64,000 nucleotides of DNA from the NCBI GenBank assembly GCA_036362985.1, contig JAYGXS010000003.1:84190117-84254116 (forward strand). The letters are read 5' to 3'. Source of the DNA: Ligula intestinalis (lineage: Eukaryota; Platyhelminthes; Cestoda; Diphyllobothriidea; Diphyllobothriidae). A model generated the notes under the pieces. It was not told the DNA's origin. It made no database searches and worked only from the letters and a program-made list of their open reading frames with translations. This document shows positions 71 through 44,049 of this stretch, piece by piece. The position numbers and the translations under genes were made by a program. The number at the start of each line of letters is the position of its first letter. The stretch's first letter is position 1.

Positions 71-152
71 TTTTCTTGAAATTATCAATGCTTTTGACCA
101 CGTTTGCGAGGTTGCAGACAGGGGAATGTAAGGCACAAGTTACGAAAAGAGC
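71..152 (-). pseudogene. Decayed E-type zinc-finger exon
   Basis: The minus strand aligns with the E-type finger exon at 305-391 at both ends: an AG acceptor just upstream and a tail reading AAGAAAA followed by GCGCGCC, where the intact copy has GTGCGCC. The donor GT has become GC, the unit has a net loss of about 5 nt, and the frame reaches two stops after the first histidine. I infer a dead array member. The array probably continues beyond the left edge. Confidence 0.45.
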
Positions 153-304
153 CTGAAAGACACTGCAGTGAGAAAATTTCATTCATTTTATTGCAGTCGC
201 GAGTGAGAGCGGGCGGTTAAAAATGGTAAGGTAAGGATGAATAACGTTGCGAATAAAAGAAAAGATGCATAGAAATTAATCGAGTCATATCAACAGAGGC
301 GCAC

Positions 305-391
305 TTTTGTGGATGTCATTGATATGCTTGGTTAAGTTTCCCTTCAACGAAAGGCAAGTGCCACAGATCTCACAATTGAACTTCTGTTTCG
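305..391 (-). CDS. Single C2H2 zinc-finger exon, E type
   Basis: This 87-nt exon has acceptor TTTTACAG and donor GTGCGC, with phase 1 at both ends. It encodes one finger: C-x2-C (CEIC), twelve residues, then H-x4-H ending in VHK-like IHK. The usual aromatic before the helix is replaced by Leu. Predicted helix positions -1, 2, 3 and 6 are L, G, N and K. C2H2 fingers bind nucleic acid as nuclear regulators. The target here is unknown. It is the last intact unit of the array on the left side and lies downstream of the nested transposons. Confidence 0.75.
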
Positions 392-682
392 CTGTAAAAG
401 AAAATAATAAAAAAACAGAGAGAACTTATTCGTTTAAGGCAATGCGAACTTGGTTGAGCTGATTTAATTTATCCGCCCAACCCCTCCAAAATTTAACGAA
501 GATTAAAATCTGAAGGCAAGGCAATTGACAAAGCCGGGCTTCATACAGCCAGTCTGTGGGTACTTAAAAACCTTAAGCCCTAGACAACATGTAATGCGCA
601 GAATTTGCATACAGTTCATCGCTATTCAAATCGTGCAGGCATTTAAAAACTAAAGCAGAAGTATAAACACTCAAAGGCAAAT

Positions 683-1029
683 GTAGCCCCACTCATATAC
701 CCAGCATTTTGTCCTGCAAAAACGGTGGTTTTAGAGCTTTATGAGGTGGGGAAATAGGAAAGACAGAGAAGGAAACTTTTAGAAATAAGTGTCAAGTGAA
801 TAAATGTAGTCGAAGTTGCTTCCCGCGGCCGCTGGGAGCAGGTTGTTCCACATGTAAACTGAAGATGTGCGCGCTGCTTCGCGCCACGGACTATACTTAT
901 CTAACTCCAGAACGGTAAGTTGGACCACAGGAACGTTGAAGTAGACGACCTCCTAAGCACCATTTCAATTTTTCGGGAAATTCAAGAAAATTGCAATTTG
1001 ATAATCAGGTTTTTCCGCAATAAGTTAAA
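683..1029. mobile_element. R2 inverted-repeat element, left part
   Basis: The segment starts with GTAGCCCCACTCAT, and the matching inverted end (ATGAGTGGGGCTAC) lies at 8599-8612. The interior matches an uninterrupted relative at 28.7-29.2 kb, and homology breaks at the 3' end of the RTE-like element. I read this as a non-autonomous inverted-repeat (MITE-like) element of unknown superfamily, split by the LINE. No coding capacity is seen. Confidence 0.6.
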
Positions 1030-40862: not shown

Positions 40863-42117
40863 ATCGAAACAAGACTCTCGGTATTGGATGCTGGAATGTA
40901 CGAACGTTCCTGGCCCCTGGTATCCAAAGCCTGACTGTGCGCAGCCTTTATCAGTACAACGTCAATGTCTGGTGCCTGTCCGAAGTCCGACTCCCTAACT
41001 CCGGCGCTCAAGAAATAAAAGCTCCTGGAACGGAATCCAACTTCACCCTATAACACAGTGGCCCACATGACACCTCCGGCAGACATAGTGTGGCAATTGC
41101 CCTCTCGCAACAAGCGAGCCGTGCAATACTTGCCTGGGAATCAGTCAATGAACGCATGGCTTATGCGTGCTTGAAAGGTCACTTCACAAAGATATATGTG
41201 GTCGCGGTATATGCAATAACGTCCGCTGCTGAGCAACGCGATAAGGAAATATTTTACTCTCAGTTACAAACACTGGTTAAAAGGCTCCCTTGACGCGATA
41301 AGTTGATTGGTGCCGGCTATTAGAATGGCCGGACTGGGCCGGGTGACTCCATAAACAGCCATCTTATCGGCCGCTTTGGGCTTGGTTCTCGATGTGAGAA
41401 GGGTGACAGATTGCTGAACGGAACAGACTGTTTGTAACGAACACGTGCTTCCAGCACCGCAACAAACACTTTCTGACCTGGTACTCCAACGACGGCCATA
41501 CGGCCAGTCAGATAGGCTATATTTTAGTCAGCTTAAGATTCCGCAGCTCGGTTCATGATAGTCGATCACTGCATGGTGCTGAGACTGGTAATGCCCATGG
41601 CTCTGCCACGTTCTTGTTCGCACACGCTTGAAAGCTCACCTCTCATCTGCGCCCAAAGTGCCCCACGCTAGCCGCCTCGACGTCACCAAAATCCGGCAAC
41701 CCAACACCGCTGAGGACCTAAGCAGTGAAATCCAGTCCTTTTTCACGACCCACGCCGACAACGAAGGGAGTAACCCATGGTCCTCACTGAAAACATCAGT
41801 CTATGGAGCAGCGCCACAGTGATTGGATCAGCGGACGAACCCTGCAGTTGTCTGCGGAGACAGCCCGAGCTAGGGGCCGTAATGACAATTCTTTCCACCA
41901 ACTAAGGAAGATGACGGCAAAATTAGCCAGAGAGGACCGAAATAAATACTGGGCTGAAATTGCAACCTCTATGGAGCAGGTTTCAAACGTTGGTAATACT
42001 CGTAAGCTTAACCAACTTATTCGCCAGGCTAGAAGTAGACTGTCTTCACTGAGTGACTCAGTTCGTGATGTGAATGGCAGTTTTATTGCTGACACCGCGA
42101 CCAAGATTGAACGCTAG
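40863..42117 (+). pseudogene. RTE-like endonuclease region, copy B
   Basis: Begins GIGCWNVRTFLAPGIQSL, then VWCLSEVRLPNSG, SGRHSVAIALSQQ and WYSNDGHTASQIGYILV-like text near 41,500, across several frames. APE-type endonuclease hallmarks (WNVRT, SE) are visible. Stops at about 41,052 and 41,292 and frameshifts interrupt it. Confidence 0.72.
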
Positions 42118-42189
42118 CGAGAGCCCTTCGAGCACCTCCTCAACTTAGATACGGAGCTCACCGTCCCCTGCCTCCTCCATCTCTCACTT

Positions 42190-43750
42190 ATCTAGTGTCA
42201 TGCGACCCTGCTTTCTGAAGCAGAAATCGCTGATGCCATAAAAAGGCTGCGCAACAATAAGGCACCTGGAGAGGACTGCATACCCGCTGAAATCTATAAG
42301 TTTTGTGCCGACACTCTGGTGCCTTGGCTCCATGCGGGGATCGGACAAGCATAGAGAGAAGAAACCGTTCCCGATGACTGGGGCTCAGGCAGCCTTGTGC
42401 CTGTCCACAAGACCGGAGACAAGACAAAATGTTAGAACTACTGCGACATAAGCCTCAGCGACATTGCTGCGAAGATTTTCGGTATTGTTCTCCTCAGGCG
42501 GTTCCAGTCTGTGCGCGACTCCAGGACGCGATCCAACCAGGCCGGATTTCGTGCTGGGCGTAGATGTGTGGATCAGGTATTCATACTGCGATGGATCCTT
42601 GAATTACGCCATAACTACCAACAATCAACGGTCATTTGCTTTGTTGACATTGCCGCTGCGTTCGACTCCATCCATCATGACTCCCTGTGGCGAATAATGG
42701 CATTTGACATTCTACCACCAAAACTAATCGCTATGATCAAGGTATACAACCGCTCCATCACTGCGCGGGTTTCAGTTCACAACAAAAACTCAGGACCCTT
42801 CGCTATTCGGTCAGGCGTTTGGTAAGGCTGTGTCCTGTTGCCCATTCTCTTCAACTTCGCCATTGACTGGGTACTCGGGAAGGCCCTACAAGAAATTCAC
42901 GGTATTGAGCGTGCACTCGGACGCCGGTTGACTGACCTCGACTATGCCAATGACATCGCTTTACTAGCATCAAGCTTTGTCGATTTCCAGTCTATGGTGT
43001 CACAGGTGAACGAGGTCGCGAAATCGGTGCGTTTGTGCATAAACGCTGGGACGACCAAAATGCTTTCATGTTGCATCCCTGCCGAAGAGAAAGCACCTCT
43101 CGAGATAAGTGGCTATCAACTTGAAGAAGTCGACAGCTTCAAATACTTGGGAGCAAGGTTGCTGCCGAATGGACAAACTAACGGTGACATTGTCTTTCGA
43201 ATTGACGCAGCACGAGTGCTTTCCAGCCTTCGGAAGTGCTTATGGACCCGACGCGATATTTATATCTCAACAAAGATCCGCGCGTACCGTACATTTGTGC
43301 GGTCCGTTATCCTATACGGATGCGATTGGTGGGCTCTGCGCGTGGAGGATGAACAGAAACTGGAAGTCTTTGACCACTACTGTCTGAGGAACATCCTTCG
43401 AGTGAAGTACACCGACTTCGTCTCAAATGAAACAGTCTGCACTCGCTGTGACAGATTCTAAAGGATATCCCAAGCCATTCAGGAAAGACGGCTGAGGTAG
43501 TTTGGACACGTTCTTCGTCGCCAACCTCAAGAGCTTAGTGCTACTGCCCTCGACTTGAAACCGTTGCCTAATTCGAAATTTCGAAGAGGAGTCAACTCAA
43601 AACCTGGCTCGACTCAGTCCGTCAGGACATGGAAGTGGTTCTCTGGCCTTCGGTCTCCAGCGCTGGCGAAGAGAATGAGTCGAACTGTCCAGGTCTGCGG
43701 CCACGGATCGTTGCGAGTGGAGAAGCACCATACGGGACATAATTGAGGCC
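42190..43750 (+). pseudogene. RTE-like reverse transcriptase region, copy B
   Basis: RT motifs are VPDDWGSGSLVPVHKTGD, FVDIAAAFDSIHHDSLW, MPILFNFAIDW-like text and DLDYANDIALLASSF. The catalytic YADD is YAND here (about 42,946), losing the first Asp, whereas copy A keeps YADD. An open stretch of 207 codons (42,838-43,461) covers palm to thumb. The C-terminal basic tail is broken by stops near 43,460 and 43,500. Confidence 0.75.
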
Positions 43751-43962
43751 GGCTAGATCAGTCATGATCGCAGCCGTAGTAGCAAATATTCATATCAACC
43801 ATCGGAGCGAGCTCAAAAATCCCTGGTGCGAAAGTTAACCTCACAGTTCCCGCATAAATTGCCAAGGAAATTAAAAACTACAATGAAGACATAACGAGCA
43901 AGAAAACTAACCCGGGGAAGCAAATGAGACCTAAAAGTGGAGAAATGAGGGAGGAGACGTAC

Positions 43963-44049
43963 GCTTATAGGCCCTATCGACGTGCCTTTTCAGGAATTCC
44001 TTCTAGGAAAAACCTTTGGCACAAAACTCGCAAGTCCAACTTCAACTTG
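43963..44049 (-). pseudogene. Dead W-type zinc-finger exon
   Basis: The unit has the 87-nt length and the GTACGT donor, and reads WTCEFCAKGF like the W exon at 8,734. It carries two stop codons, its second zinc His is Tyr, and the acceptor AG is AA. It cannot contribute a finger. Its neighbour L-B is still open. Confidence 0.75.

What the first reader, a model, noticed from the sequence alone, without database searches (positions are those of the whole stretch)
71..44049. Array of interchangeable 87-nt exons, each encoding one C2H2 zinc finger
Seen: 14 intact and 3 dead units on the minus strand. Each intact unit is exactly 87 nt, has an AG acceptor and GT donor, starts with the last 2 nt of a codon and ends with the first nt of the next (symmetric phase 1). 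Each encodes C-x2-C-x12-H-x4-H. Known: C2H2 arrays need a short linker (TGEKP-type, five residues) between the last His and the Phe-x-Cys of the next finger. Inference: joining any unit to any other gives K-x-L-R-N-like linkers of exactly that length, so fingers can be included, skipped or reordered by splicing or duplication without breaking frame or spacing. This could be a constitutive many-fingered protein, or a splicing-diversified zinc-finger locus in the style of Dscam exon clusters.
Basis: partly seen in the sequence, partly recalled or inferred. Interest (0 to 1): 0.92.

Follow-up and report, generated by a model that had tools for sequence, protein, structure and literature searches.

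The report
One-finger-per-exon zinc-finger gene pair
Two neighbouring zinc-finger genes, probably from a tapeworm, keep each DNA-reading finger in its own interchangeable exon; they look like many-fingered DNA-binding proteins related to a PRDM9-like family rather than proven splice-shuffled ones.

Summary
The 14 minus-strand units are real: each is 87 nt, AG|87|GT, phase 1-1, C-x2-C-x12-H-x4-H. I find 2 dead units, not 3, and nothing at position 71. The single-array reading is wrong: N-terminal coding exons precede finger exons twice, so the window holds two tandem paralogous genes: gene 1 (46364 to 24234; 12 fingers, 2 dead units, 3' end not found) and gene 2 (11432 to beyond the edge; 2 fingers seen). 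Spliced in silico, gene 1 is open for 486 aa and aligns from residue 1 with a Schistocephalus solidus protein of 8 fingers. Seven diphyllobothriid tapeworm relatives carry 5-9 tandem fingers, 43 of 44 intervals being 29 aa. This favours joining many fingers over Dscam-like one-of-many choice, but no transcript of the window was available. Two Sparganum relatives carry a PR/SET domain; that of P0027 is closest to PRDM9. The window copies have none detectable. Within finger types, contact codons have omega 1.58 against 0.46 elsewhere, mostly from one type. Fingers multiply with flanking intron. Most likely: diversifying DNA-binding proteins, analogous to KRAB zinc-finger genes. Species undetermined.

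The parts
46320..46364 (-). gene 1 exon 1 (ATG, ends phase 0)
   Evidence: model; matches start of P0005, tblastn E 0.71 alone, supported by paralogous exon 1 of gene 2 and by the end-to-end blastp
44636..44677 (-). gene 1 exon 2
   Evidence: AG/GT, matches P0005 (E 0.30 alone)
44276..44528 (-). gene 1 exon 3, acidic box exon, ends phase 1
   Evidence: tblastn of P0005 N-terminus E 6.9e-24
44166..44240 (-). gene 1 exon 4, ends phase 1
   Evidence: tblastn E 0.002; AG/GT
43963..44049 (-). dead finger unit, type C: acceptor AG lost, two stops
40236..40322 (-). gene 1 finger exon, type A
39203..39289 (-). gene 1 finger exon, type A
38409..38495 (-). gene 1 finger exon, type D
37227..37313 (-). 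gene 1 finger exon, type B
35984..36070 (-). gene 1 finger exon, type C
34817..34903 (-). gene 1 finger exon, type B
33004..33090 (-). gene 1 finger exon, type B
30692..30778 (-). gene 1 finger exon, type A
28258..28344 (-). gene 1 finger exon, type A
27089..27175 (-). gene 1 finger exon, type A
26637..26723 (-). dead finger unit, type A: acceptor AG lost, second Cys and last His replaced
25821..25907 (-). gene 1 finger exon, type A
24234..24320 (-). gene 1 finger exon, type D, last one found; terminal exon not identified
11388..11432 (-). gene 2 exon 1 (ATG)
   Evidence: paralogous to gene 1 exon 1, 79.5% identity
9266..9310 (-). gene 2 exon 2
8912..9158 (-). gene 2 exon 3, acidic box exon, ends phase 1
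   Evidence: tblastn of P0005 N-terminus E 2.7e-24
8734..8820 (-). gene 2 finger exon, type C
305..391 (-). gene 2 finger exon, type B; gene 2 runs to or beyond the window edge

Best explanation
Two tandem paralogous genes, probably of a diphyllobothriid tapeworm, each encode a short acidic N-terminal region followed by a C2H2 array in which every finger is one 87-nt phase 1-1 exon. The pre-mRNA is most likely spliced exon after exon into one many-fingered DNA-binding protein; units with a ruined acceptor are left out without harm to the frame. New fingers arise when an exon plus flanking intron is duplicated, and their DNA-contact residues then diverge, so binding specificity turns over. Shown: exon anatomy, two N-terminal exon sets, shared flanking introns, similarity to a tapeworm protein family. 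Inferred: that these exons are joined in RNA, DNA binding, the organism, and the function, which I take to be a clade-specific regulator or silencer analogous to KRAB zinc-finger proteins.
For: 14 of 14 units intact, 87 nt, AG/GT; random substitution to the same divergence would leave all 14 intact with probability about 1e-29 (crude). Two N-terminal exon sets with tblastn E 6.9e-24 and 2.7e-24 to Schistocephalus P0005, in phase with the finger exons. Gene 1 model, 486 aa without a stop, aligns with P0005 over residues 1-372 against 1-384, 43% identity, E 7.6e-102. Of the 120 proteins listed, the four tapeworm proteins P0006, P0005, P0027, P0002 have the highest summed per-finger identity. Seven tapeworm relatives with 5-9 fingers, 43 of 44 intervals 29 aa. 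Flanking introns shared between same-type units. Omega 1.58 at contact codons against 0.46 elsewhere in 23 within-type pairs.
Against: No transcript of the window. No terminal exon found for gene 1 (0 candidates). Exons 1 and 2 alone match weakly (E 0.71 and 0.30). N-terminal exons of the two genes are no better conserved (79.5-83.3%) than neighbouring intron and upstream sequence (86.9% and 78.4%), so constraint there is weak. The contact-codon signal is weak outside type A: type B gives 0.91 against 0.71, and over all 91 pairs 1267 of 8855 column sets are at least as diverged. A young retrotransposon lies about 20 bp upstream of the gene 1 ATG and could have disabled its promoter. The top-scoring hit is an unnamed protein (P0001), not a tapeworm one.
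Confidence: 0.68

Rival explanations
1. Splicing-diversified locus: from the same exon set different cells or life stages include different fingers, giving many DNA-binding proteins from one gene.
For: All exons are symmetric and 182 of 182 ordered junctions avoid a stop codon. Relatives differ in finger number, 5-9, and P0005 ends after its eighth finger in what looks like intron read-through (inference).
Against: Relatives carry many fingers per chain; symmetric exons are equally expected from exon duplication alone; no isoform set was seen, though clusters proteins at 90% identity and would hide isoforms.
Confidence: 0.14
2. A decaying relic: the units are remnants of a once active gene family and no longer make a working protein.
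For: 2 of 16 units are dead; gene 2 lacks most of exon 4 (seen in the sequence); a retrotransposon lies about 20 bp upstream of the gene 1 ATG; no terminal exon found.
Against: 14 units keep frame, length, Cys/His and splice sites at 13-51% divergence from their consensus; omega outside contact codons 0.46; all 7 N-terminal exons are open.
Confidence: 0.1
3. One very long gene: transcripts run through both N-terminal sets and all 14 fingers belong to one protein.
For: Same strand and order; junctions are in phase throughout.
Against: Gene 2 has its own ATG exon and exons 2 and 3, paralogous to those of gene 1, one stretch being 805 aligned bases at 76.6%, as expected from duplication of a whole gene.
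Confidence: 0.04

Closest known systems
Schistocephalus solidus C2H2 proteins P0005 and P0006 and Spirometra erinaceieuropaei P0002
   Same: N-terminal acidic box, 29-aa finger period, x-L-R type linkers; gene 1 aligns with P0005 at E 7.6e-102
   Different: only about 43% identical to P0005; 8-9 fingers against 12 in gene 1; exon structure of the relatives could not be seen
Sparganum proliferum PR/SET zinc-finger proteins P0027 and P0121 (named prdm9 and prdm7 by their source)
   Same: N-terminal box (P0027 E 7.8e-6, P0121 E 3.6e-5 against gene 1) and 29-aa finger period
   Different: they carry a PR/SET domain; the window has none detectable
Vertebrate PRDM9
   Same: tandem C2H2 array with divergence at contact residues (PRDM9 side from abstracts)
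   Different: no PR/SET domain here; fingers are separate exons, not a coding minisatellite
Mammalian KRAB zinc-finger genes
   Same: tandem gene copies, many fingers, diverging contact residues (recalled for KRAB genes)
   Different: no KRAB domain found; 78% of long human C2H2 repeats lie in one exon (PMC1553488, passages)
Dscam exon clusters; lola and mod(mdg4) of Drosophila (recalled)
   Same: sets of related exons that could be exchanged
   Different: those choose alternatives (recalled); here relatives carry many units in one chain, and no BTB domain was found

Membership tests
C2H2 zinc-finger proteins | C-x2-4-C-x12-H-x3-5-H fingers in tandem with short linkers | tested here: met
   14 of 14 units; joined fingers match PF00096 at E 1.5e-64
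Diphyllobothriid box/C2H2 family (P0005-like, my name) | N-terminal acidic box | tested here: met
   E 2.3e-32 (gene 1) and 6.9e-24 (gene 2) against P0005
Diphyllobothriid box/C2H2 family (P0005-like, my name) | fingers every 29 aa | tested here: met
   by exon length 87 nt in 14 of 14; 43 of 44 intervals in seven relatives
Diphyllobothriid box/C2H2 family (P0005-like, my name) | short S/T-x-E-D-stop end as in P0002 and P0027 | tested here: inconclusive
   0 candidates downstream of gene 1; P0005 and P0006 also lack it
Diphyllobothriid box/C2H2 family (P0005-like, my name) | one finger per exon in the relatives | not testable with these tools
   no genomic DNA of the relatives was at hand; the P0005 tail and the 35-aa interval of P0006 hint at it
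PRDM9 | PR/SET domain | tested here: not met
   best tblastn match of P0027 PR region E 0.75, inside a retrotransposon at 5227-5069; none by Pfam in the gene 1 and gene 2 N-terminal models. Exons upstream of those modelled cannot be excluded
PRDM9 / KRAB zinc-finger genes | KRAB domain | tested here: not met
   no KRAB match up to E 1 in the two N-terminal models
KRAB zinc-finger genes (as functional analogue) | accelerated change at DNA-contact residues | tested here: inconclusive
   omega 1.58 against 0.46 within types; 119 of 8855 column sets as diverged within types but 1267 of 8855 over all pairs
Dscam-type exon cluster | one exon of the cluster per mRNA | not testable with these tools
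   no transcripts; relatives with 5-9 fingers per chain argue against it
lola/mod(mdg4)-type locus | common BTB N-terminus | tested here: not met
   no BTB match up to E 1 in the two N-terminal models

The most novel reading that the evidence does not exclude
Tapeworms built their own analogue of the mammalian KRAB zinc-finger system from a PRDM9-like ancestor: some copies lost the PR/SET part, genes multiplied in tandem, and fingers are exchanged as exon-plus-intron cassettes instead of as a coding minisatellite, so DNA specificity can change by duplication, by loss of a single splice site, or by splicing.
Probability: 0.27. Interest if true: 0.78.

Novelty: new variant of a known kind. Interest (0 to 1): 0.5.

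Why it matters
If right, finger turnover in this family is laid out in genomic DNA exon by exon, with flanking introns that can be aligned and dated, so the birth and death of DNA-reading modules becomes directly countable. It also points to PRDM9-type PR/SET zinc-finger proteins in parasitic flatworms, for which my searches listed no paper that by title and abstract start treats such a gene, and to SET-less relatives that may have arisen from them, a parallel to the proposed link between PRDM9 and KRAB zinc-finger genes (recalled).

Tried and rejected
Single 44-kb array: rejected once N-terminal exons were found twice. A third dead unit: not found by ungapped matrix scan or nhmmer --max. Terminal exon like that of P0002/P0027: 0 candidates in two scans (strict patterns, so a diverged exon could be missed). 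Rfam at gathering threshold 0 matches, ARAGORN 0 genes. Region-limited protein search with residues 1-152 of P0005 returned only P0005 itself among 158 candidates, although P0002, P0006 and P0027 share the box, so that search was insensitive. NCBIfam: 0 families for 3 proteins. A first omega estimate (contact 1.83, rest 0.41, 20 pairs) had a grouping slip that dropped 3 of 23 within-type pairs; one search replaces it with 1.58 and 0.46. Own-genome search: 7 requests answered busy (my last notebook entry miscounts them as 8), so the rest of gene 2, the copy number and the organism stay unknown. Of 861 and 813 protein hits, 120 each were listed; I printed 21 of the 235 distinct ones, ran the gene models against all 235, and counted finger spacing in 10 that I chose. 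Of those 10 the report's 5-9 range uses the seven diphyllobothriid ones; the three left out are P0063 (Hymenolepis, 8 fingers, intervals 46 then 29), P0204 (Heterobilharzia, 7 fingers, 28 aa) and P0153 (oyster, 11 fingers, mostly 28 aa). Not used: structure prediction, fold search, collection scans.
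Full report
Observation. Scans of six frames and with a position matrix found 14 C2H2 units, all on the minus strand, all exactly 87 nt between an AG and a GT, each starting with the last two bases and ending with the first base of a codon. nhmmer with filters off found 16 unit hits, E 3.3e-22 to 1.1e-12, and up to E 1 only one other, E 0.29. 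The two extra hits are dead: the one near 26.7 kb has lost its second Cys and last His, the one near 44.0 kb has two in-frame stops, and both lack the acceptor AG. I found no third dead unit and nothing at position 71. In the 14 units 13-16 of 17 bases before the acceptor are pyrimidines. Random substitution of the consensus to each unit's own divergence (13-51%) would leave all 14 intact with probability about 1e-29 (crude, with a floor of 1/4000 per unit). The array is not chance.

Modularity. 0 of 182 ordered pairs give a stop in the junction codon, and joins leave 7 residues between the last His and the next Cys, as in TGEKPYxC (recalled).

Two genes, not one array. The joined fingers were searched against about 5.8 billion proteins. 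The top hit is an unnamed protein; P0002 (Spirometra erinaceieuropaei), P0005 and P0006 (Schistocephalus solidus) rank 2, 5 and 6, and P0027 (Sparganum proliferum) 27. By summed per-finger identity these four lead the 120 listed proteins. Their N-terminal regions match the window twice. Gene 1 has exons at 46364-46320, 44677-44636, 44528-44276 and 44240-44166; gene 2 at 11432-11388, 9310-9266 and 9158-8912. tblastn of the P0005 N-terminus gives E 6.9e-24 (gene 1) and 2.7e-24 (gene 2); the short exons 1 and 2 match weakly on their own (E 0.71 and 0.30). The last N-terminal exon of each copy ends in phase 1, the phase of the finger exons. Most of exon 4 is missing in gene 2 (sequence printed), but its exon 3 joins its first finger in phase. 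Gene 1 spliced in silico is open over 486 residues and aligns with P0005 over 1-372 against 1-384, 43% identity, E 7.6e-102. Gene 1 thus has 12 intact and 2 dead units; gene 2 shows 2 units before the window ends. The 3' end of gene 1 was not found.

How the protein is probably made. I have no transcript of this locus; relatives are the indirect test. In seven diphyllobothriid proteins (P0002, P0005, P0006, P0027, P0121, P0137, P0139) I counted 9, 8, 9, 6, 8, 6 and 5 fingers; 43 of 44 neighbouring intervals are 29 aa, one is 35 aa. P0005 ends with HKS and a hydrophobic tail, which resembles reading through a donor in the window, where such read-throughs run 4 to 41 residues. The 35-aa interval of P0006 could be use of an upstream acceptor. 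Both hint, no more, that exon borders sit at the same place in Schistocephalus. A Schistocephalus transcriptome was prepared for TSA (PMC4891850, passages); that P0005 and P0006 come from it is my inference.

How fingers multiply. Same-type units share flanking intron: the type D pair aligns from 91 bases before the exon start to about 600 after it, the type B units at 305 and 33004 from -230 to +162, and the type C unit at 8734 and the dead one at 44.0 kb over a 755-base upstream stretch and the unit itself. So the duplicated piece is exon plus intron. The order in gene 1, x for dead, is xC A A D B C B B A A A xA A D; the types are my grouping by sequence.

Selection. In 23 within-type pairs omega is 1.58 at helix positions -1, 2, 3, 6 and 0.46 elsewhere. 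119 of 8855 sets of four variable columns are at least as diverged within types, but 1267 of 8855 over all 91 pairs. Type A gives 1.72 against 0.37, type B only 0.91 against 0.71; leaving out one unit moves the contact value between 1.17 and 2.18. Column 10, not a contact position, varies as much as position -1. I read this as suggestive only. The N-terminal exons of the two genes are 79.5-83.3% identical, no better than the intron between exons 2 and 3 (86.9%) or upstream sequence (78.4%).

Relation to PRDM9. P0027 and P0121 carry a PR/SET domain (Pfam PRDM2_PR, E 5.1e-33 and 2.8e-34). Against solved structures the PR region of P0027 is closest to PRDM9 (4c1q, E 2.4e-32), ahead of PRDM12 (2.8e-19). 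Their N-terminal box resembles that of gene 1 (E 7.8e-6 and 3.6e-5). A similar-looking box stands before the PR/SET domain of P0204 of Heterobilharzia americana, but its match to gene 2 is only E 0.095. In the window no PR/SET domain, KRAB or BTB was detected. The window genes are therefore not PRDM9; they are related to a family with PRDM9-like members. Which form came first is not shown.

Organism. The nearest named relatives belong to Diphyllobothriidea (order placed; genus membership recalled). A GC content of about 45% and several LINE- and LTR-type reverse transcriptases fit what is reported for Spirometra, 46% GC and 43% repeats (PMC4265353, passages). The species is not determined.

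Literature. PRDM9 with tapeworm: 1 paper, on house mice. PRDM9, Platyhelminthes and zinc finger: 2. PRDM9 with Schistosoma: 9. From titles and abstract starts none treats a flatworm PRDM9 gene; I did not read them. Finger-per-exon searches listed 4 and 2 papers, none on this by title; a wider one matched 355 papers, of which 12 were listed. Fingers split over exons are not new: 78% of long human C2H2 repeats lie in one exon but 11% in zebrafish (PMC1553488, passages).

Verdict. Real, functional-looking, and better explained as two many-fingered genes of a tapeworm family than as a splice-choice locus. The exon-per-finger layout with traceable exon-intron duplication and the tie to a PRDM9-like family are what is interesting.

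Noticed in passing
about 46385-51217: A young LTR retrotransposon (LTRs 318 bp, 3 mismatches; open 1457-aa frame) lies about 20 bp upstream of the gene 1 ATG, same strand as the gene; the sequence beyond it (51228-51272) matches gene 2 upstream sequence (11459-11502), so it landed in the 5' flank of gene 1 and could have changed its promoter.
   Followed up: partly
2189-6485: An older LTR retrotransposon (LTRs 91.6% identical) with broken frames (RVT_1, rve) lies between the two gene 2 finger exons.
   Followed up: partly
1235-8356 and 40780-43591: Two inverted, 70-78% complementary copies of a reverse-transcriptase element, one interrupted by the older LTR element, one between exon 4 and the first live finger of gene 1.
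   Followed up: no
60767-61193 and 61946-62372: A 427-bp direct repeat at 99.8% identity, 1179 bp apart; recent duplication or assembly effect.
   Followed up: no
22827-23646 and 31494-32177: Foldback-like inverted repeats, arms 66-129 nt at 87-97% complementarity.
   Followed up: no
protein P0204 (Heterobilharzia americana): A schistosome PR/SET protein whose 7 fingers are nearly identical 28-aa repeats, resembling the minisatellite-like array of PRDM9.
   Followed up: no
   Followed up: no
17675-18631: A 318-aa frame with a DUF1759 match (E 1.1e-8), likely a retroelement gag remnant.
   Followed up: no
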